A DNA stretch of 58,954 nt from an uncultured Burkholderiales bacterium (GTDB lineage Bacteria; Pseudomonadota; Gammaproteobacteria; Burkholderiales; Burkholderiaceae_C): the NCBI GenBank assembly GCA_902825995.1, contig CADEDE010000008.1:1-58954 (forward strand). Direction: 5' to 3'. Below are positions 1-58,954 of this stretch, piece by piece. Under the pieces are notes generated by a model. It ran no database searches. It was not told the origin of the DNA and saw only the letters and a list, made by a program, of their open reading frames with translations. The position numbers and the translations under genes are program-made. Each line of letters starts with the position of its first letter. The first letter of the stretch is position 1.

Positions 1-53
1 CCTTCGTGCTGCGCACTCCGGTATTCGCCCTTGGGGCGGCCCGGCGGGCTCAT
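1..53 (-). repeat. REP-like start-codon repeat, copy A (left end)
   Basis: Reading on the minus strand this begins ATGAGCCCGCCGGGC and runs to the left edge. It is the exact reverse complement of the right end of the window (58902-58954 region). It contains short hairpins: GCCCG-C-CGGGC, CGCCC-CAA-GGGCG and GTGC-GCA-GCAC. In frame it encodes [18 protein letters not shown] or nearly so. Other copies lie at 8536, 17795-17848, 51920-51976 and 58901. Confidence 0.9.
1..53 (-). CDS. N-terminal fragment of a gene leaving the window on the left
   Basis: The ATG at 53-51 opens a frame that encodes the repeat-derived peptide starting [17 protein letters not shown] and stays open to the edge. Its ATG overlaps the TGA of the preceding small protein (ATGA). 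This fits the next gene of the gua operon carrying a repeat-derived N-terminal extension, as moaE, nadA and the M32 peptidase do. The product cannot be identified; in related bacteria a tRNA adenosine deaminase (tadA) often follows guaA, but that is only a guess from gene order. Confidence 0.45.
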   Translation of the reverse strand, partial: MSPPGRPKGEYRSAQHE

Positions 54-310
54 GACTGCGCGGCGTTACTGCGATCGACGCCTTTTTGCAGTGCAGCATC
101 GGTGGCGTTGCGCACGTTGTTCTGGATCGACCGGGCCTGCGCCGGCACGCTGGCTTCGAGCAGGGTCGGGGCCGCATCGGCCAGGCCCTCGGCCGGTACG
201 CGGGTGGTCGTGGCGCCGGTCTGGCCCAGCGCCTGCAATTGCGCTTTGCCGAGCACACCGACGATGGCCAGCGCCATCAGCAAGGACATCACACCGAAGA
301 TCATTCGCAT
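50..310 (-). CDS. small single-pass membrane protein, unknown function
   Basis: An 86-residue protein starting MRMIFGVMSLLMALAIVGVL. The first 20 or so residues form one hydrophobic segment (signal anchor or signal peptide). The rest is Ala/Gln-rich and hydrophilic with no recognisable domain. The start is chosen at 310 because a GGGAG sequence lies about 14 bases upstream and guaA stops only 7 bases before it. An upstream start at 358 would lie inside guaA. Its TGA overlaps the ATG of the next, repeat-initiated frame. It is probably the third or fourth gene of the gua operon. Homologues next to guaA are seen in related bacteria as hypothetical proteins; no function is proposed. Confidence 0.7.
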   Translation of the reverse strand: MRMIFGVMSLLMALAIVGVLGKAQLQALGQTGATTTRVPAEGLADAAPTLLEASVPAQARSIQNNVRNATDAALQKGVDRSNAAQS

Positions 311-317
311 CAGAGGA

Positions 318-1904
318 TCACTCCCACTCGATCGTCGCCGGCGGTTTACTCGACACATCGTAGGTTACGCGGTTGATGCCGCGCACTTCGTTGATGATGC
401 GCCCGCTCGTCCGCTTCAGAAGGCCGTATGGCAGTTCGGCCCAGTCGGCGGTCATGAAGTCGCTGGTCTGCACCGCACGCAGTGCAACGACGAAATCGTA
501 GGTCCGGCCGTCGCCCATCACGCCGACGCTCTTGACCGGCAGGAAAACCGCGAAAGCCTGGCTGGTCAACTCGTACCAGCTCTTGCCCGAATTCGGTTCA
601 ATGGTCGAACGCAGCTCGTCGATGAAGATCGCATCGGCGCGGCGCAGCAGGTCGGCATAGTCCTTCTTCACCTCGCCGAGGATGCGCACGCCCAGGCCCG
701 GACCCGGGAACGGATGGCGATAGACCATGTCGTGCGGCAGGCCGAGCGCGACGCCGAGCTCGCGCACTTCGTCCTTGAACAGATCTCGCAGCGGTTCGAG
801 CAGTTTCAGCCCCAATGTTTCGGGCAGGCCACCGACATTGTGGTGACTCTTGATCGTGGTCGCTTTCTTGGTCTTGGCGCCGCCGCTCTCGATCACATCC
901 GGGTAGATCGTGCCCTGGGCCAGCCACTTGGCATTGGCGAGTTTTTTCGCCTCGCGCTGGAAGACTTCGACAAATTCTCGGCCGATGACCTTGCGCTTGG
1001 CTTCGGGATCGGTCACGCCCTCGAGATGGCCGAGGAACTGGTCGGCGGCATCGACGTGAACCACCTTGGCGTGCAGGCGGCCGACAAACATCGCCATCAC
1101 CGCTTCAGCCTCGTTCAGGCGCAGCAAGCCGTGATCAACGAAGACACAAGTCAGCTGGTCGCCGATGGCGCGGTGGATCAGCGCCGCAGCGACACTCGAA
1201 TCGACCCCGCCCGACAGACCGAGGATCACCTCTTCGCTGCCGACCTGATCGCGGATCTTCGCCACCGCTTCGGCAAGGTGGTCGCGCATGACCCAATCCG
1301 GCGCGGCGGCGCAGATGTCGAGCACGAAGCGATCCAGCATCACCCGGCCCTGCACCGTGTGCGTGACCTCGGGGTGGAATTGCACGGCGTAGTAGCCGCG
1401 CGATTCGTCGGCCATGCCGGCGATCGGGCAACTCGGGGTGCTGGCCATCAGCTTGAAGCCGGGCGGCAGGGCGGTGACCTTGTCGCCGTGGCTCATCCAG
1501 ACTTTGAGCATGCCGTGGCCCTCGGGGGCGACGAAATCCTGCAGGCCTTCGAACAGGCGGGTGTGGCCGCGCGCGCGCACTTCGGCATAGCCGAATTCGC
1601 GCTGCGTCGAGGCCTCGACCGCACCGCCCAGCTGCACCGTCATCGTGAACATGCCGTAGCAGATGCCCAGCACCGGCACGTCGGCCTGCCACACGGCCTG
1701 CGGCGCGCGCAGATCCTGTTCTTCGTAGGTGCTGGCGTGGCTGCCCGACAGGATGATCCCCTTCGGCGCGAACTTGCGGATGAAAGCGTCGCTGACGTCG
1801 TTGGGGTGGATCTCGCAATAAACATGCGCCTCGCGCACGCGGCGCGCAATCAGCTGCGTGAGCTGCGAGCCGAAATCGAGGATCAGGATCTTGTCGTGGG
1901 TCAT
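318..1904 (-). CDS. guaA: GMP synthase (glutamine-hydrolysing)
   Basis: Converts XMP to GMP using ATP and glutamine, the last step of de novo guanine nucleotide synthesis. The protein is 528 residues, normal for the family. The N-terminal class I glutamine amidotransferase domain has nucleophile Cys82 in GICYGMF and catalytic His177 and Glu179 in QFHPEV. The ATP pyrophosphatase domain starts with the PP-loop SGGVDS at 231-236, followed by the dimerisation domain and the C-terminal TIEWE end. The start ATG at 1904 overlaps the TGA of the upstream MFS gene by 4 bases (ATGA), so the two are likely translationally coupled. It shares an operon with guaB, with a transporter gene interposed. Confidence 0.98.
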
Positions 1905-3169
1905 GTCTGGGCCGGGTGCAGGGATTTCAGGGCGCGCTCGCGGGTGAAATGGCGCAACGCAATCAGCATCGCCGCAGCTTGCAGCGCGGCGCAGAAATAG
2001 TACGGTGCACCGATGCGCCAATCGCCCTGCGGCAAGTGCGATACGAAGGCCAGCATCGCCGCGCCGATGACCGGCGCGATCACGGCCATCAGACTGTTCA
2101 ACGACGATACGGCGCCCATCGTGCGACCCTGCGTCGTTTCGTCGGCGGCGTTGGAGACGATGCCCTGCATCGCCGAAGCGACCGCAAAGCCGAGCAGGTT
2201 GAAGCCGATCACCACGATCATCATCCAGCCCGCCGGCGCCAGGCCCCACGCCAGGTAGCACAGCGACGAAGACAGCAAGCCCATCACCGCCAGCCGCTGC
2301 GCCGAGAAGCGGCGCAACAGGTGCTTGAGCAAGACACCCTGCACCAGGGTTGACATCACACCCACCGCGAACAGGGACCAGCCGTTGTGCAGCGGCCCCC
2401 AGCCGAACTTGAACGCGGTATAGAGCACCCAGGTCGAGTGCAGCACGAACTGCGCCAATGCCGACAAGGCCAGCACGATCACCAGCGGCCCGATGCCCTT
2501 CAACCCGGCCAGCCCGCGCAGCGAGGCCAGCGGATTGGCCTTGCGCCAGTGGAACGGTGAGCGCCGATCGGCCGGCAGCGACTCGGGCAGCACGAAATAG
2601 CCGTAGGCCAGGTTCAGCAAGGACAAGCCGCCGGCGACGAAGAACGGCAGGTGCAAATCGATGTTGCCGAGCAATCCGCCCAGCACCGGGCCGAGGATGA
2701 AGCCCAGGCCGAACATCGCGCCGAGCAAGCCGAAGCGCCGCGCGCGTTCCTCCGGCGGCGTGATATCGGCGACATAGGCGTTGGCGACCGCGGCATTGGC
2801 CATCAAGGCGCCGCTGAACAGGCGCACGACGATCAACATCCACAGCGCCGTCGCGATCGCGGTGACGAAGAAGCTCAGCCCCAGGCCGGCAAAGCCGACC
2901 AGCAGGATCGGGCGGCGGCCGTAGCGGTCGGACAGTGCGCCCAGGATCGGCGAGCCGAAGAAGTTGGCAATACCGAAGGCGAACATCACCGCACCGAACC
3001 AGAAGGCCTGGTCGGCCTGGCTGGCCGTGAACGTACCCACCAGCGGCGGCAGGACCGGAATGATCAGGCCGATCGAGACCATGTCGATCAGCACCGTGAT
3101 CAGGATAAAGGGCATCGCCGCCCGCGTGGGCGCCGACGTCGCAGGCAGGGCGGCAGGCGTGGAGGACAC
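1901..3169 (-). CDS. MFS efflux transporter, TetA-like (DHA1), within the gua operon
   Basis: A 422-residue major facilitator protein with about 12 hydrophobic segments. The loop 2-3 signature [14 protein letters not shown] is typical of drug:H+ antiporters, and the segment after TM4 ([26 protein letters not shown]) resembles the TetA/DHA1-12 motif. The start is a GTG at 3169, three bases after the guaB stop, and the gene ends in an ATGA overlap with guaA. Placement between guaB and guaA suggests co-transcription and perhaps export of a purine-related compound, but the substrate cannot be read from sequence. A tetracycline-resistance role should not be assumed. Confidence 0.85.
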
Positions 3170-3172
3170 GCG

Positions 3173-4642
<1,470 letters not shown>

Positions 4643-4669
4643 GGGAAAAAGCTCCAGACGCAAAAGTCG

Positions 4670-5972: not shown

Positions 5973-7214
5973 TCATGCGGTCACCGCACGTGTCGTGCCC
6001 AGGCGCAGGCCGATCATCGACGCACACACGACCCCCAGCGCCAGCGCCAAGGCCGCGCCGAAGAACACGCCGCCAGGGTGGCCGCCGTCGAGTACCGCAC
6101 CGAATACCGGCGCGGCCAGCGCAAAGCCGAGATCCAGCCCTGAATAGACCGTGCCATAGACGCGCCCCGTCGCGCCTGGCGGCGCGGCACGCTTAATCAG
6201 CATATCGCGCGATGGGCCGGCGAGCCCCGCTCCGAGCCCGGCCAGCGCAGCCACGCCGATGGCCACCCGACCTGGCAGCCAACCCGTGCCGACCAGCGCG
6301 AGCAGTGCGGCCGAGCCGGCCAGGCAGATGCCGATCAGCCGTTCCAGGCGCTGCGCGCGCGCGGCCTGAAAACCGCCCAGCAACATGCCGGCAATGCCGC
6401 AGACCATGTAGCCGGTGACGACAAACGACGCCTGCTCGAGCGGCAAGCCGTACAGCTTTTGCAGCGCGGGACCGGCAAAGCTGAGGATCACGGTCAGCGC
6501 GCAAGTCGAGAAGAAGAAAAAGCAGAAGCACAACCACACCGAAGGCAGGCGCAGGAAAGCCAGCGCCGGTTCGGCCGCCGCCACGGTGACGCGCTTGGCG
6601 TGGCCGCCCTCGTTTGCCCGATCGTCAACTGCATCCCGCTGCCACAGCATCAAGGCCAGCACCGCCAGCGCCCATAACGCGCAGGCGGCCATGGCCCAGC
6701 GCCAGGAACCCGTCAAGCCGCTGACGCCGAGCAGAACCAGCGGCGCGACCGCCCACCCGAGATTGCCACCGACGCCATGCACCGCGAAGGCGTGACCCAG
6801 GCGCGGTTGCGATACGCGCTGGTTGAGGATCGTGAAATCAATCGGGTGGAACGGTGAGTTGCCCAAGCCGGCCAATGCCGCCGCCAGCAACAAGCCGCCA
6901 TAGCCTTGCGCCAACGCAGCACTCGCCGCAGCAACCACAAAACAGCCAAGCGCGGTGAACAGCACCGGGCGCGCGCCAACACGGTCCACCAGAAAACCGG
7001 CCAGCGCCTGGCCAATCCCCGAGATGACAAAAAACAAGCTCACCAGCAGCCCGAGTTCGGCGTAGCTGAGCCCGAAACTCTCTTTGAATACCGGGAACAG
7101 CGGCGGCAGCAGCAGGTGGAATAAATGTGAGGTGCCATGCGCCAGACCGACCAGCGAAATCGTGCGCAGGTCTTGCCTGCGGATGACAGGGTCGGCGCTA
7201 GAGGTAGGGCTCAT
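5973..7214 (-). CDS. MFS transporter, fosmidomycin-resistance (Fsr)-like
   Basis: A 413-residue membrane protein with about 12 predicted helices. The N-terminus is LVGLAHGTSHLFHLLLPPLF followed by VFKESFGLSYAELGLLVSLFF, a pattern of the Fsr/YfnL-type branch of the MFS; the loop 2-3 motif is GFLVDRVGARPVL. The start MSPTSSAD at 7214 is chosen over an in-frame start at 7286 because the extra residues are hydrophilic and unlike the family. It is divergent from the unknown gene at 7377. The substrate is unknown; the family name reflects one characterised member only. Confidence 0.8.
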   Translation of the reverse strand: MSPTSSADPVIRRQDLRTISLVGLAHGTSHLFHLLLPPLFPVFKESFGLSYAELGLLVSLFFVISGIGQALAGFLVDRVGARPVLFTALGCFVVAAASAALAQGYGGLLLAAALAGLGNSPFHPIDFTILNQRVSQPRLGHAFAVHGVGGNLGWAVAPLVLLGVSGLTGSWRWAMAACALWALAVLALMLWQRDAVDDRANEGGHAKRVTVAAAEPALAFLRLPSVWLCFCFFFFSTCALTVILSFAGPALQKLYGLPLEQASFVVTGYMVCGIAGMLLGGFQAARAQRLERLIGICLAGSAALLALVGTGWLPGRVAIGVAALAGLGAGLAGPSRDMLIKRAAPPGATGRVYGTVYSGLDLGFALAAPVFGAVLDGGHPGGVFFGAALALALGVVCASMIGLRLGTTRAVTA

Positions 7215-7376
7215 GGCGCAATGGTAGCGAGGGAGCCCGGGTGGCCCACGATGGCGACCGAATGTGACAACGGTGACAGCCCGCACCGGCCGACCCAGGC
7301 CCGTTGCGGGTGGGCACCGACCGCCCCACCTGATTCGTTAGCCTACCGGGATCTCGACGCTACAACGAGCGGAAAA

Positions 7377-8507
7377 ATGTTGAAATCCCTCTTCGGCGAA
7401 CTGACCGCCACGCCCTTGAAGCCCGGCAGTCCGGTGCCGGCCTTTGCCGCCACCGCCGTGCTCGAAAGCACCGACACCCACCTGGCCGACGACGGCCGCA
7501 TGCTCGACCGTCACCAGCAGGATCTTTTCGTCACCGGCTCACCGGCGCAGGCCATGCGCGAACACCTGGCCCAGGCCCAGAGCGGCACCGACGTACGCAC
7601 GATCACCCTGCTCGACCCGTCGCGCCTGTGGGCGCCGAGTGTGGTCAAGGCACTGTCCGATGCCACCGGGCAACCGGTGGAAAAGCTGCACCTGCGCGAA
7701 CAGGCGTCGCTGCGCATCCTGGCCACGCTCGAGCGCACCGTGGTGCCGCGACGCGGCGACGCCACGCTGAAGATCTACCATGCCGACCTGCGCGTGGCTG
7801 AAGGTGAAAACCTGCGCATTCCGTTCGTGCTGATGGAGCGCAGCCAGATGTCTGCCGTGATCGTCGGCCCGATGCAGGCAGCCGAGGTCGAGGGCCTGTT
7901 GCTGGCGCTTCACGCCGCCGTGCGCGAGGCGAATTGGCGTTGCGAATCCCTGATCTTCCTGTTGCCGCCCAGCGGCGCCTGGATCGCCAGCAAGATTGCC
8001 AGCCTCGACTGGCCGCGCACACTGCAGGTCGAGGTGCTGGACGAGCCGCTGGTCGGCACCTCGTCGGTGTGGAACGCCTTGCTCGCGGCGTGGGACCGCC
8101 AGCATGGGCCGAGCGAACTGCCCGCCGACCCGGCGGCACTCGAAGCCCGCGCTGTGGCGCGCCAGTTGCGCACGCTGATGCACACCGACGGCGTGCTCGG
8201 CTGCGGCCTGGTCGATGCCACCGACGGCGACCTGCTGGCCGGCGAATCGCGCGACGCCGGCACCGGCCTGGCGCGTGCTGCCGCCGCGCTGGCACCGGTG
8301 CTGCGCGCGCATCGGCAGGCCAGCGAGGCGATGTCCATGCCGGGGTCATTGGACGAAATCGCCTTCGTCAATGGCGGCGTTTGCCATCTGTTGCGCCCGC
8401 TGCGGCAACGGCCGAACCAGTTCCTGTTCGCGCGCATCGACCGCTCGCACGCCAACCTGGCACTGCTGAAGTTCAAGCTCGCCGAAGCCGAGCGCAACCT
8501 CGGCTAG
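7377..8507 (+). CDS. unknown protein with C-terminal roadblock/LC7-like domain (paralogue 1), upstream of nadA
   Basis: A 376-residue soluble protein. No name is recognised. Residues about 1-250 form an alpha/beta region ([15 protein letters not shown] ... TITLLDP ... [23 protein letters not shown] ... [11 protein letters not shown]). About 265-376 resemble a roadblock/LC7 fold ([24 protein letters not shown], then CHLLRPL ... [25 protein letters not shown]). The protein at 11433-12773 shares both parts, so they are paralogues. The start at 7377 has a GAGCGGA sequence just upstream; a longer in-frame extension to 7137 would overlap the divergent MFS gene. It ends 28 bases before the repeat that precedes nadA, so an operon with nadA is likely. 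Function unknown. Confidence 0.75.
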
Positions 8508-8535: not shown

Positions 8536-8588
8536 ATGAGACCGCCGGGCCGCCCCAAGGGCGAATACCGGAGTGCGCAGCACAGAGA
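8536..8588 (+). repeat. REP-like start-codon repeat, copy B, before nadA
   Basis: Begins ATGAGACCGCCGGGCCGCCC and shows one substitution in the first hairpin; the GTGC-GCA-GCAC hairpin is kept. It is in frame with nadA and would add 20 residues beginning [16 protein letters not shown] if its ATG were used. Confidence 0.88.
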
Positions 8589-8595
8589 TTGCCTG

Positions 8596-9708
8596 ATGAA
8601 CCCAATACTGTTCGACTACACCCGCCAGGATGCCAGCGGCGCCAGCCGCACCGAGCAGGCCTGGGCCCGCGTCCCGCTGGCGCCGCCGCCGGCCGAGCGA
8701 AAGGCCGCAAAGGCACGGGCTGCCAGGTTGCTGAAGCAGCACAACGCCGTGCTGGTGGCGCATTACTACGTCGATGGCGACGTGCAGGATCTGGCCCTCG
8801 AAACCGGCGGTTGTGTCGCCGACTCGCTGGAAATGGCGCGCTTCGGCCGTGACCATGCGGCGCAGACCCTGGTCGTGGCCGGCGTGCGCTTCATGGGCGA
8901 GACCTCGAAGATCCTGTCGCCCGCCAAGCGCGTGCTGATGCCCGACCTGGAAGCCAGCTGTTCGCTCGACCTCGGTTGCCCGCCCGACGAATTCGCGCGC
9001 TTTTGCGACGCCCATCCCGAGCGCAAGGTGGTGGTTTATGCCAACACCAGCGCCGCGGTAAAGGCGCGTGCCGACTGGATGGTGACCAGTTCCTGCGCCC
9101 TGGCCATCGTGCAACACCTCGAGGAGCAGGGCCAGAAAATCCTCTGGGCCCCCGACCGCCACCTGGGTCGCTACATCCGCGACCAGACCGGCGCCGATAT
9201 GCTGCTGTGGAACGGCGAGTGCATCGTGCACGACGAATTCAAGGCCCTCGAACTCGATCTGATGAAACGCGAGCACCCGGGCGCGCTGGTGCTGGTGCAT
9301 CCCGAGTCGCCGGCCGGCGTGGTGGCGCTGGCCAATGTGGTCGGTTCGACCTCGCAGTTGATCCAGGCGGTGGTCGATGGCAGCGCCAGCACCTATATCG
9401 TCGCCACCGACAAGGGCATCCTGCACCGCATGAAGCAGCTTGCACCAGGAAAAACCCTGCTCGAAGCACCCACCGCGGGCCAGAGTGCAACGTGCAAGAG
9501 TTGCGCCCATTGCCCCTGGATGGCGATGAACGCGGTGCAAGGGGTGATCGATGGCCTCGAGCACGGCCACGGCACGATCGTCGTGCCCGAGCCGACACGC
9601 GCCCGGGCGCTGGCCTGCATCGAGCGCATGCTGGCCTTCGTCGCGGCCAATCCGGCGAGCATTGCCCAGCCGCGGCGCGGCTGGGCGCCCAACATCGGCA
9701 GCGCCTGA
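8596..9708 (+). CDS. nadA: quinolinate synthase
   Basis: Condenses iminoaspartate with dihydroxyacetone phosphate to quinolinate, the second step of de novo NAD synthesis, using a [4Fe-4S] cluster. The protein is 370 residues from [11 protein letters not shown]. Cluster ligands are Cys122 ([10 protein letters not shown]), Cys209 ([11 protein letters not shown]) and one of the cysteines in CKSCAHC (300-306). The substrate motif [13 protein letters not shown] is at about 55. The start at 8596 gives the family N-terminus. The repeat immediately upstream provides an alternative in-frame ATG at 8536 that would lengthen the protein by 20 residues. It converges on nadB with a 1-base gap. Confidence 0.97.
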
Positions 9709-16901: not shown

Positions 16902-17300
16902 TCAAGGCCCGACCAAGACCCTGACCGTGGCCAGCCCGAGCAGAGTCAGCAGCAGCGAACCGGCCAGGTGCGACAGCGCAATCGTCGCCGCCCACCCCAC
17001 TTCACCGCGCGCAAAGGCGTTGACCACCTCGGCCGAGAAGGTCGAAAAGGTGGTCAGGCCGCCGAGGAAGCCTGTGATCAGCGCCAGCCGCCACAACAGC
17101 GACAGATCGCTGCGCCAGGCAAAGAAAGCGATCGCCACGCCGACGAGGTAGCCGCCGATCAAGTTGGCCGCCAGCGTACCGAGCGGCAGGGGTGGCAACA
17201 GGCGGTTGAGCGTTTCGCCCAGGGCATAACGCAGGCAGGCGCCGATGCCTGCGCCAAAGAATACGGCCACGAGCGACGAGCCTATCGGTACTGACGTCAT
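16902..17300 (-). CDS. crcB: fluoride channel FluC/CrcB
   Basis: A 132-residue protein with four hydrophobic segments. Family motifs are present: GAGIGACLRY near the N-terminus, LAANLIGGYLVG (pore Asn), and GFLGGLTTFSTFSAE (phenylalanine box and central Na+ site). It works as a dual-topology dimer that exports fluoride. Its ATG overlaps the moaE TGA (ATGA), so it is translated as part of the operon and there is no room for a fluoride riboswitch. The start at 17300 is chosen over 17369, which lies inside moaE. Confidence 0.93.
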   Translation of the reverse strand: MTSVPIGSSLVAVFFGAGIGACLRYALGETLNRLLPPLPLGTLAANLIGGYLVGVAIAFFAWRSDLSLLWRLALITGFLGGLTTFSTFSAEVVNAFARGEVGWAATIALSHLAGSLLLTLLGLATVRVLVGP

Positions 17301-17848
17301 CCCGCGTTGCCGCTCTTCAAACCCCAGCGTTCGAGCGCCGCGTCGTCGGCGACGCACGCATCGACCCACTCGGTCGTGCCGTCCGGGCGCTGCTCTTTCT
17401 TCCAGAACGGGGCCTGAGTCTTCAGGTAGTCCATCAAAAACTGGCAGGCGGCAAAGGCCTCGCCACGGTGTGACGAGCTCACCGCCACGAGCACGATCTG
17501 GTCCTGCGGCGCGAGCACGCCGACACGGTGAATGACCCGCGCAGCGCGCAGGTCGAAGCGCTGGTGAGCGGCGTCGATCATGGCCTCGATCGCGCGCTCG
17601 GTCATGCCCGGGTAATGCTCGAGCTCCATGCGCGCGGTGTTTGCCGGGCCGGTGCCCTCGCTGCGGTCGCGCACGGTACCGATGAAGCTGGCCACGGCGC
17701 CAACGGCCGCGTCGCCGGAACGCAGTTCGGCGATTTCGCGGCCGATATCGAAATCTTCGTGCTGGATGCGAACGCGCGCTGCGGTCAGTGCAGAACCTTC
17801 GTGCTGCGCACTGCGGTTTTCGCCCTTGGGGCGGCCCGGCAGGCTCAT
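17297..17848 (-). CDS. moaE: molybdopterin synthase catalytic subunit, with repeat-derived N-terminus
   Basis: Large subunit of molybdopterin synthase, which transfers sulfur from MoaD thiocarboxylate to precursor Z. It is 183 residues, about 30 longer than usual. The first 18 residues, MSLPGRPKGENRSAQHEG, come from the dispersed repeat. The true MoaE domain starts near VRIQHEDFDIG and includes HYPGMTERAIEAM, SSHRGEAFAACQF and the active-site lysine segment WKKEQRPDG. No ATG, GTG or TTG lies between the repeat and the domain, so the repeat ATG at 17848 is the only ordinary start. A strong GGAGG stands 6 bases before it. It lies 2 bases after moaD. Confidence 0.95.
   Translation of the reverse strand: MSLPGRPKGENRSAQHEGSALTAARVRIQHEDFDIGREIAELRSGDAAVGAVASFIGTVRDRSEGTGPANTARMELEHYPGMTERAIEAMIDAAHQRFDLRAARVIHRVGVLAPQDQIVLVAVSSSHRGEAFAACQFLMDYLKTQAPFWKKEQRPDGTTEWVDACVADDAALERWGLKSGNAG
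17795..17848 (-). repeat. REP-like start-codon repeat, copy C, forming the moaE 5' end
   Basis: Minus-strand copy starting ATGAGCCTGCCGGGCCGCCC and ending CACGAAGGT. It differs from the terminal copies at a few positions (C to T in the first stem, giving a G-U pair; AAAACCGC in place of ATACCGG). It directly abuts the native ribosome-binding site of moaE. Confidence 0.9.
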
Positions 17849-49196: not shown

Positions 49197-50423
49197 ATGG
49201 TGACCCGGCGTGGCGGTGCCAAGCTGCCACGCATTGGTTTGGCGCTGGCCGGCGGCGGACCGCTCGGCGCGATCTACGAAATCGGCGCACTCTGCGCGCT
49301 CGACGAAACACTCGACGGTCTGGACTTCACGCAGCTCAGCGGCTACGTTGGCGTCTCGGCCGGCGGTTTCATTGCCGCGGGCCTGGTCAACGGCATGACG
49401 CCACGCGAGCTGTACGCGGCCTTCATCGAAAACGACAGCCGCGACGATGGCGACCTGTTTCGCCCTTCGCTGCTGATGCGCCTGGCCTGGGGCGAGTACC
49501 TGCACCGCCTGGCCGCCCTGCCCGGCTTGGCCGCGCAGGCCGCCCTGCACTATGCCTTCAAGCGCCGCTCGCCGCTCGAAGCCTTCGAGCGCCTGGGGCG
49601 TGCGTTGCCCGCAGGCCTGCTCAGCGGTGCGGCGATGGAGCGCCAAGTGGCGCGCTTGTTTTCAGCGCCCGGCCGCAGCAATGACTTTCGTCAATTGAAT
49701 CGGCAACTGGTCTTGGTGGCCACCGATCTGGACAGCGGCGACGCCGTGCCCTTCGGCCAGCCTGGCTTGGATGACGTGCCGATCTCGCTGGCCGTACAGG
49801 CCAGCGCCGCACTGCCCGGCCTGTATGCGCCGGTGCAGGTCAAGGGCCGCACCTGCGTCGATGGCGTGCTGAAGAAAACACTGCACGCCTCGGTGCTTCT
49901 CGACGAGGGGCTGGACCTGTTGATCTGCCTCAACCCGCTGGTGCCCTTCGACGCCACCCATGCCGCGCGGCACAAAGTGTTGGGCAGCGGCGAAGCGCGC
50001 ATCCCGCGCCTGGTCGATGGCGGCCTGCCGGTGGTGCTGTCGCAGACCTTCCGCTCGCTGATCCATTCGCGGCTCGAACTGGGTCTGAAAGGCTATGGCC
50101 AGAGCCATCCGGGCACCGATATCGTGCTCTTCGAGCCGGACCCCCGCGACCCCGAGATGTTCCTGGCCAATACCTTCAGCATGTCGCAGCGTCGTTTGCT
50201 CGCCGAGCATGCTTATCAGCGCACACGCGAGTTGCTGCGTTCGCGGCGCTCGTCGCTGGGCGCGCAACTGGCGCGGCATGGCCTGTCGATCAACGACACC
50301 GTGCTCGACGATCCCTTGCGCCGCTTGCTCGGGCGGCAACGGCGCCTGGCGGGAACGCGATCGGCGCGGGCGCTGAAGCGGCTCGACGAGGTCTTGAACG
50401 ACCTCGAACTGGCGCTGGGTTAA
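49197..50423 (+). CDS. patatin-like phospholipase
   Basis: A 408-residue patatin-family acyl hydrolase. The oxyanion loop is AGGGPLGA at 18-25, the nucleophile Ser54 lies in GVSAGG, and the dyad Asp222 is in CVDGVLKK. There is no signal peptide, so it probably acts in the cytoplasm. Its position directly after the phasin suggests action on PHA granules or stored lipid, which is inference. It ends overlapping the stop of the converging M32 gene. Confidence 0.9.
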   Translation: MVTRRGGAKLPRIGLALAGGGPLGAIYEIGALCALDETLDGLDFTQLSGYVGVSAGGFIAAGLVNGMTPRELYAAFIENDSRDDGDLFRPSLLMRLAWGEYLHRLAALPGLAAQAALHYAFKRRSPLEAFERLGRALPAGLLSGAAMERQVARLFSAPGRSNDFRQLNRQLVLVATDLDSGDAVPFGQPGLDDVPISLAVQASAALPGLYAPVQVKGRTCVDGVLKKTLHASVLLDEGLDLLICLNPLVPFDATHAARHKVLGSGEARIPRLVDGGLPVVLSQTFRSLIHSRLELGLKGYGQSHPGTDIVLFEPDPRDPEMFLANTFSMSQRRLLAEHAYQRTRELLRSRRSSLGAQLARHGLSINDTVLDDPLRRLLGRQRRLAGTRSARALKRLDEVLNDLELALG

Positions 50424-51916
50424 GCCAGGTACCGCGCCTCCAGATGCGCCTTGAAAAAGGCCGGATTCAAAACCTCGCCACTGGCGCGAACCGCCAGTTC
50501 GTCGGTGGTCCAGCGCGAAGCCTGCGACCAGATCTTGTTGCGCAGCCAATCGAATACCGAGGCCCAGTCGCCAGCCGAAATCCGCGCGTCCAGATCGGGC
50601 ACCGCGCGCCGCATCGCCGCGAACCACTGCGCCGCATACATCGCGCCGAGCGAATAGCACGGGAAATAGCCGAACAGGGATTCCGGCCAGTGCACGTCCT
50701 GCAACGGGCCGTCCTTGAAATTGTCGCGCGACTCCAGGCCGAGCAGTTCCTGCATTTTCGCGTCCCACAGCGCCGGCACGTCCTCGGCCTCGATCGTGCC
50801 TTCGATCAGCGGGCGCTCGATCTCGTAGCGCAGGATGATGTGCGCCGGGTAGGTCAGCTCGTCGGCATCGACGCGGATCAAGCCGCGCTTCACCCGCGTC
50901 AACAGCTTGTGCAGGTTGCCGGGCTCAAAAGCCGGCTGCGCGCCGAAGGCTTGGCCGAGCAGCGGTGCCACCGCCTGCGCGAAACCCGGATGGCCACCGA
51001 GTTGCATCTCGAACGACAGCGACTGGCTTTCGTGAATCGCCATCGAGCGCGCTTCGCTGACCGGCTGGCCGAGCCATTCGCGCGGGCGGTTCTGCTCATA
51101 GCGGCCGTGGCCGGTTTCGTGCACCGTGCCCATCAGCGCCGGCAGGAACCGGTCTTCGCGGTAGCGCGTGGTCATGCGCACGTCTTCGGGTACGCCGCCC
51201 GAGAACGGGTGCGTGCTGGTGTCCAGCCGGCCGGCCTCGAAATCGAAGCCGAGGCGGCGCACCACCTGCTGGCACAGGGCGCGCTGCGCTTCGAGCACGA
51301 AAGGTCCGACGGGTTCAAGCACCGGTTCGCGCGATTGTTTCTCGATCACGCGCTGAATCAAATCCGGCAGCCACTGCCGCACCGCACCGAAGACGCGATC
51401 CAGCGCCACGCCGGTCATGCCCGGCTCATAACGGTCCAGCAGCGCATCGTATTTCGACAAGCCGGATTGCCTCGACAACAGCGCCGCCTCCTCGCGGGCG
51501 ATCGCCAGTACCGGCTTCCAATGGGCGACGAAACCCTGCCAGTCATTGGCCGGGCGCAGCCAGCGCCAGGCGTGTTCGCAGCGCGAAGTGGCCAACTGGC
51601 GGCGCTGCACCAGCTCGGTCGGCAGCGCATTGGCACTGTGCCAATCGCGCCGGATCTCGCGCAGGTTGGCGCGCTGGTGGTCCGACAGTGGCTCCTGTTC
51701 GGCGCGCGCCAGGCGCTCGGCCAACGTGGTGTCGGTGCGCATGCGGTGCATCAGCGCCGCCAGCTCGGCCAGCGCCGCGGCGCGCGCCTCGTTGCCCTTG
51801 GGCGGCATATGGACCGCCTGGTCCCAGTCGGCGATCGAGCCCAGGTGCTGGAAGTGATGCAGGCGCGTGTAGTGCCTGGCGAGTTCGTTGTAAGCGGGGG
51901 TGGCGGTGCTGCTCAT
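50420..51916 (-). CDS. M32 family metallocarboxypeptidase (Taq-type)
   Basis: A 498-residue cytosolic carboxypeptidase with zinc motif H266-E-T-G-H270 in GTVHETGHGRYEQNRP, then EARSMAIHESQSL and DELTYPAHIILRYEIE. The native start is taken as the ATG at 51916 (MSSTATPAYNELARHYTRLHHF), preceded by GAAGGT from the end of the repeat. The repeat ATG at 51976 would add 20 residues ([20 protein letters not shown]). Confidence 0.93.
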   Translation of the reverse strand: MSSTATPAYNELARHYTRLHHFQHLGSIADWDQAVHMPPKGNEARAAALAELAALMHRMRTDTTLAERLARAEQEPLSDHQRANLREIRRDWHSANALPTELVQRRQLATSRCEHAWRWLRPANDWQGFVAHWKPVLAIAREEAALLSRQSGLSKYDALLDRYEPGMTGVALDRVFGAVRQWLPDLIQRVIEKQSREPVLEPVGPFVLEAQRALCQQVVRRLGFDFEAGRLDTSTHPFSGGVPEDVRMTTRYREDRFLPALMGTVHETGHGRYEQNRPREWLGQPVSEARSMAIHESQSLSFEMQLGGHPGFAQAVAPLLGQAFGAQPAFEPGNLHKLLTRVKRGLIRVDADELTYPAHIILRYEIERPLIEGTIEAEDVPALWDAKMQELLGLESRDNFKDGPLQDVHWPESLFGYFPCYSLGAMYAAQWFAAMRRAVPDLDARISAGDWASVFDWLRNKIWSQASRWTTDELAVRASGEVLNPAFFKAHLEARYLA

Positions 51917-51919
51917 CAG

Positions 51920-51976
51920 GGTACCTTCGGGCTTCGCCCTGCGGAATTCGCCCTTGGGGCGGCCCGGCGGGCTCAT
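51920..51976 (-). repeat. REP-like start-codon repeat, copy D, before the M32 gene
   Basis: Minus-strand copy beginning ATGAGCCCGCCGGGCCGCCC. Its third hairpin reads GGGC-GAA-GCCC instead of GTGC-GCA-GCAC: both arms changed so that pairing is kept. The end CCGAAGGT forms a ribosome-binding-like sequence 6 bases before the native start. Confidence 0.9.
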
Positions 51977-52054: not shown

Positions 52055-53395
<1,341 letters not shown>

Positions 53396-53430
53396 GGTAT
53401 CGAGCTTCAGACCCGCAGCGTAGCCTGACT

Positions 53431-54651
53431 TCAGGTCTCCAGCGCCTCGCCCGCCCACAGGCTCTCGATCTGCGGGAAGTTCCAGGCCTCGCGCGGCTCG
53501 CGGCCGGCGATGCGTTCGCGGCTGTGGGCCAGGTCGATCGTCTGCACCGGCAGCGGCAGATTGGACTCGGTCGAGAAGAAGGCTTTCACGCTCGGCAGCG
53601 TGGTGGCTTGCGGGTTCTGCCCGACCACCACGGCCAGCTTGCCCGACGCCAGGCGCACCAGCGAGCCGGTCGGGTAGATGCCCACGCTCTTGACAAAGGC
53701 AGCAAACACCGCAGGGTCGAAATGCCCCTGCCACCGCGCCATGCGGGCCATCGACTGGGCCGGATCCCAGCCGGCCTTGTACGGGCGGTTCGAAGTCACG
53801 GCGTCATAGACATCGCAGACCGCGCCCATGCGCGCCAGCAGCGTGATCCGCTCGCCGGCCAGGCCATGCGGGTAGCCGCTGCCGTCGATCTTCTCATGGT
53901 GGTGCAGGCAGACGTCGAGCACCGGTTCGCCCACGCTCTGGCCTTCGCGCAACAGGGCCCAGCCGCGCTCGGGGTGGCTGCGCATGACGGCGAATTCCTC
54001 GTCGCTCAATTTACCGGGCTTGTTCAGGATCTCGATCGGCATCAGCGCCTTGCCCATATCGTGCAGCAGTCCGGCCAGGCCGGCTTCGCGGCAGGCCGCG
54101 TGGTCCAGGCCGAGCGTGCGGCCCAAGGCCACCATCAGCGCGCACACCGCCACCGAGTGCATATAGCTGTAATCGTCGGCGGTTTTCAGGCGCGCCAGAC
54201 TGACCAGCGCTTCGGGGTTGCGAAAGACCGCGTCGGAAATCTCCTGCACCAGGGGCAGGCATTGCTGGGCATCGAGCGCGTGGCCCAGGCGGACTTCGGC
54301 AAACATCGATTTCACGGCGGCGCGCGAGCGCTTGCACAGCTCGGCGGCACGGCGCAACTCGTCGGCCAGGGTCGTCGGCTGGTTGCGCGGCGGGGGTGGC
54401 GCTTGGACCGACGCGGGCTCGATGGCAGCGGCGGCAGGGATCGTGGCGGGCGTGTCGGGTGGTGCCAGATCCAGGCCCAGATCGGTATCGATCCAGCATT
54501 CACGCACTGCGCTCGACTGCGCTGCGCGCAATTCAGCCGCGTCGGCGATGATGAAGCGCACGCGCCAGAATGGGTGATCGATCCAGGCGCCCTCGAAGCG
54601 ATGCAGGTGCATGCCCAGGCGCAGGTCGGCGACAGCGATTTTTTTCAGCAT
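53431..54651 (-). CDS. HD-GYP domain cyclic-di-GMP phosphodiesterase with N-terminal DUF3391
   Basis: A 406-residue protein. DUF3391 is at about 1-130 (KIAVADLRLGMHLHRFEGAWIDHPFW), with a Pro/Ala linker near 70-90. The HD-GYP domain has His197-Asp198 (GLLHDMGKAL), HHHEKIDGSGYPHGL and AVCDVYDAVTSNRPYK. The GYP triplet is intact, so c-di-GMP hydrolysis is expected. The 115 bases upstream (54652-54766) hold no gene. Confidence 0.94.
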   Translation of the reverse strand: MLKKIAVADLRLGMHLHRFEGAWIDHPFWRVRFIIADAAELRAAQSSAVRECWIDTDLGLDLAPPDTPATIPAAAAIEPASVQAPPPPRNQPTTLADELRRAAELCKRSRAAVKSMFAEVRLGHALDAQQCLPLVQEISDAVFRNPEALVSLARLKTADDYSYMHSVAVCALMVALGRTLGLDHAACREAGLAGLLHDMGKALMPIEILNKPGKLSDEEFAVMRSHPERGWALLREGQSVGEPVLDVCLHHHEKIDGSGYPHGLAGERITLLARMGAVCDVYDAVTSNRPYKAGWDPAQSMARMARWQGHFDPAVFAAFVKSVGIYPTGSLVRLASGKLAVVVGQNPQATTLPSVKAFFSTESNLPLPVQTIDLAHSRERIAGREPREAWNFPQIESLWAGEALET

Positions 54652-54766
54652 GTTGGCGACGCCGACTGCGCTGACGCAGGCCGGTGAGCTGCCCGCATTG
54701 TCGGCGCGTCGGACCGGCCGGGATGGCGCAAGAAGAACGCCGAATGGCGGTCAGTTATGGCGGCTG

Positions 54767-55966
54767 TCAGCGGGCCGCGCGCCATGCCAGGCTGCGGCTG
54801 CGCCAGCAGCACAGCGCTGCGGCGGCGGCCACCAGGGCCGCAGCGGCAAACACCGCCTCGAAGCCCCAGCGCTGGCTGATCGCGCCGCCGGCCACACCCC
54901 CGATCACACCCGACAGGCCGTAGCCCAGCGTCGAGTACAGCGCCTGGCCACGGCCGCGCAAGGGCCCGGAAAAATAGCGATCGATCAGGCTGATGCAGGC
55001 CGCATGCTGGGCTGCGAACGTCAGCGCGTGCAGGCTTTGCGCCAGCACCAGTACCAGCCAGGAGCCGCCGAGCGTGGCCATCGCGCCGAAGCGCAACACC
55101 GATGCCAGCGCCGCGGCCACCAGCCAGGTGTGTGCGCTCCAGCGCGCGAACCAGCGGCCCTGGGTCCAGAAAAAGGCAATCTCGAGCCCCACGCTGACAG
55201 CCCACAGTGCGCCGACCTGGCCCTTGCTGTAGCCCAGCGCGTCGAGATAAAGCGACAGGAAGACATAGAGCGAGGTGTGGGCCAGCACGGTCAAGAAGAT
55301 GCCGGCAAAAAACCACGCCACCTCGGGCCGGCGCAGCACCTGCCAGAGGCTTTGGTGTCCCGGCGCAGCCGGCGCAGTGGGCCTGCCGCGCGGTGGTCGT
55401 GGCAAGCGCCACGCGGCAGCGGCGAGCAAACCGAGCACCAGCACCAGCCATCCCGGCAAGGCCGCAATGCCGGTGCTTTGCAGCACCATGCCGAACAGCG
55501 TTACCGCGGCGATGAAGCCGATCGAACCCCACACGCGCACGCGGCCGTAGCGGCCCATGTCGATGCCCTGCCCGGTGGCCAGGCGCTGCGCGACCACGGC
55601 TTCCGTCAGCGGCACCACGGCACCGTTGGCGACGAAGATCAAGGTCACCACCAGCGCCACCGCAACCACGTCGGTCACGGCCAGCAGCCCGAGCGAGACG
55701 ACCAGCATCAGCGCGGTGGCGATGCGCAGCAACTCGACGCGGCGGGCGCCGCGGCCCCAGTGGTCGCCGAGCCAGCTCCAGCCATAGGGCGCGACGACGC
55801 GCGTCCAGGCCTGTAACGAAGCGATCGTGCCGATGGCCAGCGTGGAAAACCCGAGCGACTGGAACCACAGCGGCGCATACGGGTTGAACAACCCGATCGA
55901 CGCGAAATACATGCAGCTCAACGCAGCGTAAGGACGCAGCGAGCCCTGGGGCTCGCCTGGACTCAC
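54767..55966 (-). CDS. MFS transporter, HcaT/MFS_1-like
   Basis: A 399-residue membrane protein of the phenylpropionate-permease-like branch. The N-terminus is [33 protein letters not shown], followed by [28 protein letters not shown] and [24 protein letters not shown]. The start is a GTG at 55966 that overlaps the aroC stop (GTGA). The substrate is unknown. Confidence 0.87.
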
Positions 55967-57063
55967 GGCGCGTTGCCGGGAATCGGGGCCACGGCCAAGG
56001 TCACGTCGGCGCACTGCGCACGCTGGCGCAAGGCATGGTCCATGACCACCAGCGCCAGCATCGCCTCGGCAATCGGCGCGGCACGGATGCCCACGCAGGG
56101 GTCATGGCGGCCGTGGGTTTCAACCGTCGTCGGCTGCACAGCCCGGTCGATCGACGCGCGCGGCAGGCGGATCGAACTGGTCGGCTTGATGGCGATGGCC
56201 ACGCGCAGATCCTGCCCGGTCGAAATGCCGCCGAGAACACCGCCTGAGTGGTTGCTGCGAAAGCCTGCCGGGCTCAACTCGTCGCCATGCTCGCTGCCGC
56301 GCTGGGCCACGACCTTGAAGCCATCGCCGATCTCGACGCCCTTGACGGCGTTGATGCCCATCATCGCGTAGGCGATATCGGCGTCGAGTTTGTCGAACAA
56401 CGGCTCGCCCAGACCGACCGGCACGCCCTGCGCCAGCACCTCGATGCGCGCGCCGACCGAATCGCCCGACTTGCGCAGCGCGTCCATGTAGGCTTCGAGC
56501 CGTGGCACGATGCTGGCATTGGGCGCGAAGAACGGGTTGTTCGAGATCTCGAAAAAGCTCTCGAAGGCGATCTCGATCTCGCCCAGCGCGGCCATCCAGG
56601 CGTTGAACACCGTGCCATGCTTTTCACGCAGCCATTTCTTGGCGATCGCACCGGCGGCGACCATCGGCGCCGTCAGGCGCGCCGAAGCGCGGCCGCCGCC
56701 GCGCGGATCGCGCAGGCCGTATTTGCGCCAGTAGGTGTAGTCGGCGTGGCCCGGGCGGAAGGTATCGAGCAGGTTGCCGTAGTCCTTGCTGCGCTGGTCG
56801 GTGTTGTGGATCAGCAGCGCGATCGGCGTGCCCGTCGTCAGGCCTTCATAGACGCCCGACAAAATCTGCACCGCATCGGCCTCGTTGCGCTGCGTGACAT
56901 GGCGGCTGGTGCCGGGCCGGCGGCGGTCCAGATCGGGCTGGATATCGGCCTCACTCAAGCGCAAACCCGGCGGACAGCCGTCGATCACACAGCCGATCGC
57001 CGGGCCGTGGCTCTCGCCGAAATTGGTAACGCAAAAGAGGTGGCCGAAGGTGGAGCCGGACAT
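55963..57063 (-). CDS. aroC: chorismate synthase
   Basis: Last step of the shikimate pathway: EPSP to chorismate with reduced FMN. The protein is 366 residues. Signatures are [64 protein letters not shown] and [16 protein letters not shown]. The start [10 protein letters not shown] at 57063 fits the family; the frame extends to 57198 without similarity. Confidence 0.97.
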
Positions 57064-57181
57064 GGCACTGGTTGCGATTGGGCAGGGGTCGATTGTGACA
57101 GTGCAAGCGCCGGCATCCGTGCCAACACAGCCATAGACCTTCATGTCATCTCCTGGCAGATGTTCGGGTGGCAGCTTGGCG

Positions 57182-57952
57182 TCAGTCATCGTCATCATGG
57201 TGTCGTTCCGACGAGAACTGCGCTGCCCCCTGGGCCGGGATCAGCCCGTTGGGCGATTGCTGCGATTCCCAGCCGACGAAGGCCACCACCGCGATCAGCA
57301 GCAGGGCCGCCAGCCAGGCGTGGTTGCGTTTGACGAGGTCCGGCCCAGCGCCATCGATGCGCCCGGTCAGCATCGGCCGCGCCTGGTTCTTGCGTCGCAA
57401 CACGCTCAGCCCCACGATGAGGGCGATGTGGCCGAGCACCACGGCCAGGACGGCCTCGCCGAAAAAATCGTGCACGTCTTCGAGCCAGTCACCTCCGAGG
57501 AAGTCGCCCCACTCGTTGTTCGTGCCGTAGCCGCTGAGCGTGAGAGGGACGACCATTGCCAGCAGCGCCACGACCACGAGCGCCATCAGCAGGTTCTGAC
57601 CTTGCCGCCAGTTGATACCGTTGGTTGTGCGGTGGCTGAAGGCTTGCGCGACCGAGCGGAGCCACGTCGGCGCGCTGCCGAGCTTGCGCAACAGGAGCCC
57701 CAGGCCTGCGTGGCGAGGCCCGAACAGGCCGTAGAGCACACGGAACGCGAGCAGGCCGGCCAGCGTGTAGCCCAGCGTGACATGCAACGCACGCCAGCCT
57801 TCGCCGTCGGCCGTGAAGTAGGCGCCGACGAAGCTCAGCGCGAACAGCCAGTGGAACATGCGCGTGGGCGCGTCGGTGATGAGACGCTGCGGCGCGGCGG
57901 CCGTGCATGAGGGTCCGGCGGCGGCCGGTTGAAATGCGGGGGCTGTTTGCAT
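57182..57952 (-). CDS. cytochrome b561-type membrane cytochrome b
   Basis: A 256-residue protein with about five hydrophobic segments. Heme-ligand histidines are likely in [47 protein letters not shown]. An Asp/His-rich tail (ERHHDDDD) ends the protein. It is the membrane partner expected with the diheme cytochrome c and SHP genes just upstream, probably passing quinol electrons to them. Confidence 0.92.
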
Positions 57953-57970
57953 ATGGGGTCTCCTTCGCGT

Positions 57971-58486
57971 TCAGTCGTTCCAGGGCCGGCGCAGACGCGC
58001 GTCCAGCCCCTCGGGGAACTTCAGGTCGTCATCGTCGAAATCGCCGCGATCGGCGCCCGTGTGGCAGGCCGCGCAGTTGGCGGTGCTCTTGACGCTGGCC
58101 AGCTTCCAGACCGAGGGGTCGATCTTTCGGTGCTTGCGCTCGAACCAGGCCGAGCGAGTGATACGGTCCTGAGGAGGCTCCTCGCGCACCCGCTTGTAGG
58201 TGCCGGCATAGGCCTGCAGCCAGGCATTGAGCTGTTGCACGCTCGCCGCGTCGAGCGAGGCATCCGTGCCGTAGTGCTTGTCCAGGCCGCCCATGACGCG
58301 TTGCCATGAGCGCGCGGGCAACATGCCGGGCGGATAGGCCGTGTGGCAGGCCGCACATTCCTGCCTGTACGCAGGGGGTACGTTGAGCGGCATCGGCCTG
58401 CCGCCGTCGGCCTGGGCAGACGTGATGGCGATCAGGCCGAGAACGGCGGCCAGGGTCCAGGTGCGTTGTCGAGGTTGGTAGGTCAT
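57971..58486 (-). CDS. diheme cytochrome c (DHC-type)
   Basis: A 171-residue periplasmic protein with a signal peptide ending near ITSAQA. Two heme sites are Cys44-x2-Cys47-His48 (ECAACHTAYPPGMLP) and Cys138-x2-Cys141-His142 (NCAACHTGADRG). It matches the diheme cytochrome c family that reduces SHP. The start MTYQPRQRTWTL is at 58486; the gene is 35 bases downstream of shp. Confidence 0.93.
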   Translation of the reverse strand: MTYQPRQRTWTLAAVLGLIAITSAQADGGRPMPLNVPPAYRQECAACHTAYPPGMLPARSWQRVMGGLDKHYGTDASLDAASVQQLNAWLQAYAGTYKRVREEPPQDRITRSAWFERKHRKIDPSVWKLASVKSTANCAACHTGADRGDFDDDDLKFPEGLDARLRRPWND

Positions 58487-58521
58487 GGTGGGCTTCGGCG
58501 AGGACCGAACGGCGCGTCGTT

Positions 58522-58902
58522 TCACGGCTTGAGACTGACCAGATAGGCCAGCACGTCGGCCTTCTCACCTGCACTGCACTCGCGCTTGAGCACGTCATTG
58601 CAGTTGCGGCGAAACCACTTGTCCACCTTGGCGGTGTCGGTGAACGCCTTGGGGTTCACGGCCGGCGCCATCGGATCGATGACCTTGCCCGTGCTGGCAT
58701 GTTTGCCCTGTGTCGTCGGCGAGCTGCCGTGGCACGTGGCGCACGACCATTCGCCCCCATGCCGGCTGGTGAAGAAACCGCGACCCCGTTCGGGCTGGCC
58801 AGGCGCCGCAGCCTGTGCGCTCCAGCGCTCGAGTTGCTGCGCGGCAGACGTGTCGGCAGCCTGCACCGCCACGCACATCATGGCCAGACTGGCGCCCGCC
58901 AT
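58522..58902 (-). CDS. SHP-like oxygen-binding cytochrome c (DUF1924)
   Basis: A 126-residue secreted monoheme cytochrome with a signal peptide (MAGASLAMMCVAVQA). The heme site is Cys54-x2-Cys57-His58 (WSCATCHGSSP). WFRRNCNDVLKRECSAGEKADVLAYL is typical of the sphaeroides heme protein family, where an Asn is the sixth ligand and can be displaced by O2 or NO; Asn100 or Asn102 is the candidate. The start at 58902 overlaps the repeat ATG on the other strand (CATG). It is the first gene of shp-dhc-cytochrome b. Confidence 0.92.
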   Translation of the reverse strand: MAGASLAMMCVAVQAADTSAAQQLERWSAQAAAPGQPERGRGFFTSRHGGEWSCATCHGSSPTTQGKHASTGKVIDPMAPAVNPKAFTDTAKVDKWFRRNCNDVLKRECSAGEKADVLAYLVSLKP

Positions 58903-58954
58903 GAGCCCGCCGGGCCGCCCCAAGGGCGAATACCGGAGTGCGCAGCACGAAGGT
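58901..58954 (+). repeat. REP-like start-codon repeat, copy E (right end)
   Basis: Begins ATGAGCCCGCCGGGC and runs to the right edge, ending CACGAAGGT. It is the exact inverse of the left end over 53 bases. It points outward, so it would lead a plus-strand gene beyond the window, divergent from shp. Confidence 0.9.
58901..58954 (+). CDS. N-terminal fragment of a gene leaving the window on the right
   Basis: The frame opens with [18 protein letters not shown] from the repeat and has no stop before the edge. By analogy with the internal copies a gene start should follow immediately, but nothing of it is visible. Confidence 0.4.
   Translation, partial: MSPPGRPKGEYRSAQHEG

What the first reader, a model, noticed from the sequence alone, without database searches (positions are those of the whole stretch)
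1..58954. REP-like repeat located at the 5' ends of genes and in frame with them
Five copies (1-53, 8536-8588, 17795-17848, 51920-51976, 58901-58954) all begin with ATG and all lie immediately upstream of, and in frame with, a following gene where that gene is visible. All encode about [18 protein letters not shown]. The element has three successive small hairpins and ends in GAAGGT, which can act as a ribosome-binding site for the next ATG. So it may behave as a mobile translation-start cassette. I recall similar N-terminal peptides annotated in Burkholderiales but cannot confirm.
Basis: partly seen in the sequence, partly recalled or inferred. Interest (0 to 1): 0.78.

Follow-up and report, generated by a model that had tools for sequence, protein, structure and literature searches.

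The report
MIRU-like repeat inserted at gene junctions
A repeat of about 60 DNA letters, found in many Burkholderiales bacteria, often sits exactly where one gene's stop codon overlaps the next gene's start codon and carries its own mini-gene and ribosome-binding site, so it appears able to spread through operons without breaking the genes on either side.

Summary
The repeat is real: five copies in the window, 30 pattern matches in its genome (reversed-pattern control 0). Two window copies are contig ends, so their next gene is not visible.

A collection scan with a pattern for the 3' stem and SD core gave 80 arrays (capped list); the left end could be placed in 75. In 61 of 75 the upstream gene's own TGA is bases 2-4 of the element's first ATGA, against 75 of 268 element-free co-directional junctions. 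The mini-ORF ends on the next start in 42 of 76 assignable units, fuses in frame in 28, reads past in 6 (12 of 88 unassignable). Orthologous empty sites are bare NTGA overlaps; two of four annotated plasmid copies show the same geometry on both sides. Two stems covary.

This is the architecture described for mycobacterial MIRUs, here in Burkholderiales, with in-frame variants. Mobility is inferred; no mobilising enzyme was found, and Y1/RAYT transposases are not linked. There are no expression data.

The parts
1..53 (-). Element copy 1, read from 53 downwards, cut off by the contig end
50..358 (-). ORF of 102 aa upstream of copy 1; its stop TGA (52-50) is bases 2-4 of the element's ATGA (NTGA overlap)
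   Evidence: ORF 50..358 -; L004, offset +1, modest coding score 0.14
7137..8507 (+). ORF upstream of copy 2; ends 28 nt before it, so not an overlap (no Pfam family at E 0.001)
   Evidence: L005
8536..8599 (+). Element copy 2; fuses in frame with nadA
8596..9708 (+). nadA (quinolinate synthase), own ATG at 8596
   Evidence: PF02445, E 3e-99
17785..17848 (-). Element copy 3; in frame with moaE. No ATG/GTG/TTG at the right junction (CTGA), so moaE may start at the element's ATG; the upstream reading frame stops at -5
   Evidence: (L016)
17297..17848 (-). moaE reading frame including the element-encoded N-terminus
   Evidence: PF02391, E 1.4e-36
51913..51976 (-). Element copy 4; fuses in frame with the M32 carboxypeptidase
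50420..51916 (-). Peptidase M32 gene, own ATG at 51916
   Evidence: PF02074, E 2e-148
52055..53734 (-). Upstream gene (DUF4147/MOFRL); ends 78 nt before copy 4, not an overlap
   Evidence: L006
58901..58954 (+). Element copy 5, cut off by the contig end; next gene not visible

Best explanation
It is a short interspersed element (59-66 nt) that mostly occupies stop/start overlaps (NTGA) between co-directional genes. Left side: the upstream gene's TGA is kept as bases 2-4 of the element's first ATGA, whose ATG opens a mini-ORF of about 20-22 codons. Right side: the element ends in a Shine-Dalgarno-like motif (GGAGG/GAAGG) and an NTGA. The mini-ORF's stop usually overlaps the next gene's start; in some lineages (60-nt units, as in this window) it runs on in frame as an N-terminal extension. 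A ribosome finishing gene A can therefore re-initiate on the mini-ORF, cross the insert and re-initiate on gene B, so insertion costs the operon little. Shown here: the geometry, empty orthologous sites, tandem arrays, conserved frame logic and two covarying stems. Inferred: that copies arose by transposition, that the mini-ORF is translated, and that coupling is preserved. The mobilising machinery is unknown. It works like mycobacterial MIRUs.
For:: 80 arrays, left end placed in 75; upstream stop at +1 in 61 of 75; next gene co-directional in 70 of 73 that could be judged; start exactly 6 nt after the core in 53 of 72. Estimated base rate 75 of 268 co-directional junctions (Fisher p 7e-17). 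The 80 arrays fall into 76 clusters of DNA-similar flanks; of 88 units, 76 assignable: 38 NTGA (-4), 4 TGATG (-1), 28 in-frame fusions, 6 read-past; none with an earlier stop; bamE|dapB, fliF|fliG, M48|phhB and the cysH junction carry the element in this genome and are bare NTGA overlaps in relatives (dapB: G001, G004, G009, G011; checked); public annotation ends the upstream CDS at base 4 of the element and starts the next CDS at its right end. SD-like motif (loose match) in 58 of 66 copies in relatives, left tetranucleotide ATGA in 62 of 66 (8 of the 74 printed were dropped first: L150 of this genome, L093, and six of other 3' types). Covariation. Distribution. Coupling at -4 spacing and the MIRU precedent: PMC12548453 (passages), PMC10666635 (abstract).
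Against: In this genome fewer copies are at overlaps: 13 of 30 by the codon model, plus 3 second units of tandem arrays; nadA, moaE and M32 are not NTGA overlaps. 12 of 88 multi-genus units could not be assigned (5 no left end, 7 no right NTG). Some copies are elsewhere: L003 lies in frame inside an MFS gene, L008 runs into the 3' part of a gene, L002 has no clear downstream gene; L062 is a nest of inverted copies. Two of four plasmid copies abut only the downstream gene. Gain of a copy between near-identical strains was not tested (the within-genus attempt, reached one genome). No mobilising enzyme is known and no expression data exist. Left and right tetranucleotides often differ (left ATGA 62 of 66; right ATGA 29, GTGA 28), so a 4-bp target duplication is not seen. 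In alignment A4 two of the shuffle controls (pairs with double change 104/500, further pair types 289/500) are not exceeded.
Confidence: 0.78

Rival explanations
1. A REP element mobilised in trans by a Y1 (RAYT) transposase; the position at starts is only what selection tolerates.
For: Short GC-rich hairpins, many copies per genome, tandem arrays; 34 of 40 family genomes have a Y1_Tnp match.
Against: No GT(A/G)G head (REP definition: passages of PMC2817692). No convincing element in the 30 fetched Y1_Tnp loci, about 1.5 kb each side (model R1, best E 0.012; further Y1_Tnp places were not searched), nor near this genome's only one (best E 0.53). G021 (8 matches), G024 (11) and G015 (2) have elements but no PF01797 match. 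Arrays are direct, not inverted.
Confidence: 0.1
2. A selected cis-regulatory leader (leader peptide or RNA switch) recruited to particular genes.
For: Covarying stems, open mini-ORF, SD-like motif next to the 3' stem.
Against: The genes next to it look functionally unrelated: nadA, moaE and M32 by Pfam, and dapB, fliG, phhB, cysH, livF, cob and mrpG by my reading of the translations. Few sites are shared: 76 clusters of DNA-similar flanks for 80 arrays (distant orthologues would not cluster). The same genes lack it in relatives.
Confidence: 0.1
3. The encoded peptide is a functional N-terminal extension or targeting tag.
For: In this genome 17 of 23 assignable copies are in frame; in the MoaE copy the right junction has no start codon.
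Against: Stem changes alter the peptide in concert (S,Q,H to R,K,P) while keeping the pairing. In 48 of 76 assignable multi-genus units the frame is not that of the gene, and one element family yields unlike peptides (MSAARPPEGARTAVRSTEVSL* and others).
Confidence: 0.02

Closest known systems
MIRU (mycobacterial interspersed repetitive units; Supply et al. 1997, not held, known here through PMC12548453 and PMC4213456)
   Same: Short repeats (77 and 53 bp in PMC4213456), inserted at start codons with an internal ORF coupled to the next gene at -4 nt, several copies at one junction, apparently mobile; the review also infers minimal effect on the gene.
   Different: Other phylum; PMC4213456 says the senX3-regX3 MIRUs exist only in M. 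leprae and the tuberculosis complex. Here there are two covarying stems, an SD-like motif and 60-nt in-frame variants; whether MIRUs have such stems or motifs was not checked. No sequence comparison with MIRU was made.
REP/BIME elements with RAYT transposases
   Same: Short, GC-rich, hairpin-forming, tens of copies, a genome-wide family.
   Different: No GT(A/G)G head, direct tandem arrays, no linked RAYT found, located on gene junctions.
Rickettsia palindromic elements (RPE)
   Same: Add an in-frame peptide to unrelated proteins; L003 here is an in-frame insert inside an MFS gene.
   Different: RPEs are about 150 bp (PMC10969869, passages). These are 59-66 nt and mostly lie between genes.
MITEs
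   Same: Short, without a transposase gene, many copies, presumably mobilised in trans.
   Different: The two ends read ATGAGC... and ...CCNATGA, not terminal inverted repeats, and a 4-bp target duplication is not seen.

Membership tests
MIRU | Short interspersed repeat at start codons with an internal ORF coupled to the next gene at -4 nt | tested here: met
   Geometry only: 38 of 76 assignable units at -4 and 4 at -1; 28 fuse in frame instead, 6 read past
MIRU | Left end on the upstream gene's stop (DTGA target; recalled from Supply 1997, not read) | tested here: met
   61 of 75; in this genome 13 of 30
MIRU | Several copies at one junction | tested here: met
   L255, L283, L285, L299, L309, L316; C97, C16 and C2 in this genome
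MIRU | Confined to mycobacteria | tested here: not met
   Records named to genus are Burkholderiales genera (my knowledge of taxonomy) plus Zoogloea; some are named only Gammaproteobacteria or Proteobacteria bacterium.
MIRU | Sequence homology to MIRU | not tested
   No MIRU sequence was fetched
REP | GT(A/G)G head before an imperfect palindrome | tested here: not met
   Copies begin NTGAGC; definition from passages of PMC2817692
REP | RAYT gene flanked by, or associated with, the repeats | tested here: not met
   30 Y1_Tnp loci searched, best E 0.012; L031 best E 0.53; not all Y1_Tnp places were fetched
MITE | Terminal inverted repeats | tested here: not met
   Ends read
MITE | Target-site duplication | tested here: inconclusive
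   4-bp NTGA not identical at both ends; a 3-bp TGA duplication is not excluded
RPE | In-frame insertion inside ORFs | tested here: not met
   One case (L003); the rule is a junction or start position
Known RNA family | Match to an Rfam model | tested here: not met
   No match overlapping a copy in the window; nine element-bearing loci gave a single weak hit (mir-598 in L316), not on the element

The most novel reading that the evidence does not exclude
Stop/start overlaps are a general niche for mobile DNA: a second, unrelated class of junction elements has evolved in Proteobacteria, with its own recognition of NTGA, perhaps on single-stranded DNA or on RNA, and a built-in translational relay. 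Different inserts occupy the same bamE|dapB junction in sister genomes, which suggests several such families.
Probability: 0.4. Interest if true: 0.82.

Novelty: new variant of a known kind. Interest (0 to 1): 0.64.

Why it matters
If true, it shows that the MIRU strategy of living in translational-coupling junctions is not a mycobacterial curiosity but recurs in a large environmental order that includes Variovorax, Acidovorax and Piscinibacter sakaiensis. It would give natural insertion/empty pairs for testing how re-initiation works. It affects annotation: start codons and N-termini of a number of proteins in these genomes ([18 protein letters not shown]...) come from a repeat. It also affects assembly, since contigs can break at the copies.

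Tried and rejected
Single-strand folding of three copies gave three different best folds; covariation was used instead. The S1 reading (two successive 5' hairpins) was compared with S2 (an outer 5' stem plus an inner hairpin) on alignment A4: S2 has 12 double-change cells against 9, and a double change in the 5' stem occurs only in S2. S1 is not excluded. Rows were picked by hand: A3 has 14 of the 18 62-nt units (4 of another 5' type dropped) plus 6 units of that type; A4 has 18 of the 27 copies of A1 plus 14 of 24 60-nt units. The 3' stem of the multi-genus rows was fixed by the search pattern, so 3'-stem covariation rests on the other rows.

RAYT mobilisation: searches gave no link.

Phages: 0 exact pattern matches in viral contigs and no match of one 60-nt unit in phage records. 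Plasmids: one 62-nt unit matched 4 of 72,556 records.

A first codon-model run confused strands, probably because long antisense ORFs entered its training; it was replaced and is not used. A simpler GC3 frame test is not counted either. A first count of mini-ORF fate counted ORFs without a stop as 'internal stop'; correct it, and one search shows that the four 'internal stops' are TGATG junctions.

A within-genus survey for G031 reached only one genome and told nothing. A survey of bamE|dapB in 64 genomes (60 plus G001-G004) showed a number of NTGA overlaps and many gapped junctions; by my reading only G000 (this element) and G002 and G003 (other inserts) carry an insert at the NTGA.

Literature: ten searches were answered, on these terms: RSAQHEG; repetitive extragenic palindromic with Burkholderiales; palindromic elements in protein-coding genes; RAYT with Betaproteobacteria; ATGA overlap; Variovorax repeats and MITE (10 of 58 listed); short interspersed repeat with overlapping genes; N-terminal extension; miniature inverted-repeat with translational coupling (10 of 40 listed); DTGA with MIRU. 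No listed title or abstract start shows this family, but most subscription journals are not held.
Full report
Observation. The window is a complete contig of a 2.82 Mb draft genome, and its two ends are both copies of the repeat. The pattern GGGCCGCCCCAAGGGCGAATNC with up to 3 mismatches finds 30 places in this genome (15 forward, 15 reverse) and none when read backwards. A covariance model built from 27 of these copies finds 37 matches at E <= 1e-6 in this genome.

Own genome. Of 30 copies, 28 have a visible downstream side. In 26 of these 28 the best coding frame downstream is co-directional; L028 and L029 are weak, and L003 lies inside an MFS gene in frame. L002 and L008 have no clear downstream gene. 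The upstream gene's stop is the element's own TGA in 13 of 30; three more (L018, L023, L025) are second units of tandem arrays whose first unit lies at the stop. Mini-ORF fate: 17 in-frame fusions, 2 NTGA, 2 TGATG, 2 read-past and 7 unassignable, out of 30.

Wider sample. They hold 88 units in 80 arrays. With a codon model trained on these loci the left NTGA was placed in 75 arrays (5 dropped): ATGA in 70, GTGA in 4, TTGA in 1. The upstream gene stops exactly at that TGA in 61 of 75, ends up to 120 nt before it in 11 (four of these at -61 or -64, which fits another unit upstream), and the best frame is on the opposite strand in 3. The downstream gene is co-directional in 70 of 73 (2 lie too close to the end of the stretch to judge). 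Among 268 co-directional junctions without an element in the same loci 75 allow an NTGA overlap, an estimate that should err high; Fisher p 7e-17. That comparison rests on my simple gene calls. The flanks fall into 76 clusters at DNA level for 80 arrays, so most sites look independent, though distant orthologues would not cluster. The left base is A more often than at native overlaps (70 of 75 against 50 of 75).

Mini-ORF. Of 88 units, 76 could be assigned: 38 stop on the next start as NTGA, 4 as TGATG, 28 fuse in frame, 6 read past the start (5 of them stop within 20 nt), and none stops earlier; 12 lack a recognisable left end or right start. An SD-like motif (loose match) precedes the right start in 58 of 66 copies from relatives (8 of the 74 printed were dropped first). 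In this genome the MoaE copy, L025 and L026 have no start codon at the right junction, so there the element's ATG (GTG in L026) may be the real start.

Empty sites. Orthologous junctions were fetched for genes that carry the element here and read. bamE|dapB is a bare overlap in G001, G004, G009 (ATGA) and G011 (GTGA), checked against the bamE stop. fliF|fliG is bare in G001 (GTGA), while this genome has two units in tandem. The phhB junction is bare in G001, G004 and G008 (ATGA) and in G002 (GTGA). The cysH start is bare in G003 and G009. G002 and G003 carry other inserts at the dapB ATGA, and G003 another at fliG. Gene names other than those found by Pfam are my reading of the translations. 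Public plasmid annotation agrees in two of four cases: in Diaphorobacter pDCB2 and a Variovorax paradoxus plasmid the upstream CDS ends at base 4 of the element and the next CDS starts at its right end; in two other Variovorax plasmids only the downstream gene abuts.

Structure. In 62-nt units a 7-bp stem starting at the G of the first ATG covaries (column 7/27: G-C 9, C-G 8, A-U 2, 1 unpaired of 20). In 60-nt units a 3' stem with a GNA loop covaries (column 39/47: U-A 22, G-C 5, C-G 2, 3 unpaired of 32). In A3 no shuffle of 500 reached the observed pairing or covariation score; in A4 the same holds, but two count measures were not exceeded (104 and 289 of 500 shuffles reach them). Rows were hand-picked and related, so these are not probabilities. 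Nothing here separates selection on RNA from selection on single-stranded DNA. The same stem changes alter the peptide, which argues that structure, not the peptide, is kept.

Mobility. Evidence is indirect: different sites in different genomes, empty orthologous sites, tandem arrays, plasmid copies. Right ends (ATGA 29, GTGA 28 of 66) do not copy left ends (ATGA 62 of 66), so a 4-bp target duplication is not seen; TGA duplication or insertion 3' of NTGA remain. Y1 transposases are not linked in the loci searched. Phage collections gave no match. Gain between near-identical strains was not tested.

Distribution. 31 of 60 genomes, this one included, have a match at E <= 0.001: 27 of 36 in the family and 4 of 24 outside it, the latter weak. 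In a sample of 150 genomes of the order, this one included, 9 match at E <= 1e-6; one of them (G151) matches mostly by the 5' part only. The model was built on this genome's 60-nt type, the searches over many genomes use stricter filters, and other types are missed.

Known systems. A review (PMC12548453, passages) describes MIRUs as apparently mobile repeats that insert at start codons so that an internal ORF is coupled at -4 nt. PMC4213456 (passages) gives 77- and 53-bp units, three in number, at senX3-regX3 and says they occur only in M. leprae and the tuberculosis complex. PMC10666635 (abstract) reports that about 20 nt of spacing nearly abolishes coupling in its six gene pairs, which is why a bare 60-nt insert would be harmful and a relay ORF useful; the review also cites studies where spacing mattered less. 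I conclude that this family works like MIRU; membership is not claimed, because distribution differs and homology was not tested.

Noticed in passing
L003 (G000:C6:10026): An element copy sits in frame inside an MFS transporter-like ORF, between what look like its two halves, adding about 20 residues.
   Followed up: partly
L183 and L182 (G003, G002 bamE|dapB junction); L202 (G003 fliF|fliG): Other hairpin-rich inserts occupy the same NTGA junctions; the G003 ones share the 5' motif GCCGGGCCG(C/T)(C/T)CC with the element, suggesting several related or convergent junction-element families.
   Followed up: partly
L459 and L462: Two Variovorax plasmids carry elements before the same alpha/beta hydrolase (same protein accession) with different 5' halves and the same 3' half, suggesting turnover or recombination of units at one site.
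   Followed up: no
L062 (G009:C23:23271-23334): A nest of inverted partial copies, the only inverted arrangement noticed; the downstream frame there is not convincing.
   Followed up: no
window 1-53 and 58901-58954: Both contig ends are copies of the repeat, so the assembly seems to break there; short contig C118 also begins in a copy.
   Followed up: partly
L273 and L276: Two genera share an element at the same gene, each with a probable older unit about 61-64 nt upstream: an old insertion or a repeatedly used site.
   Followed up: no
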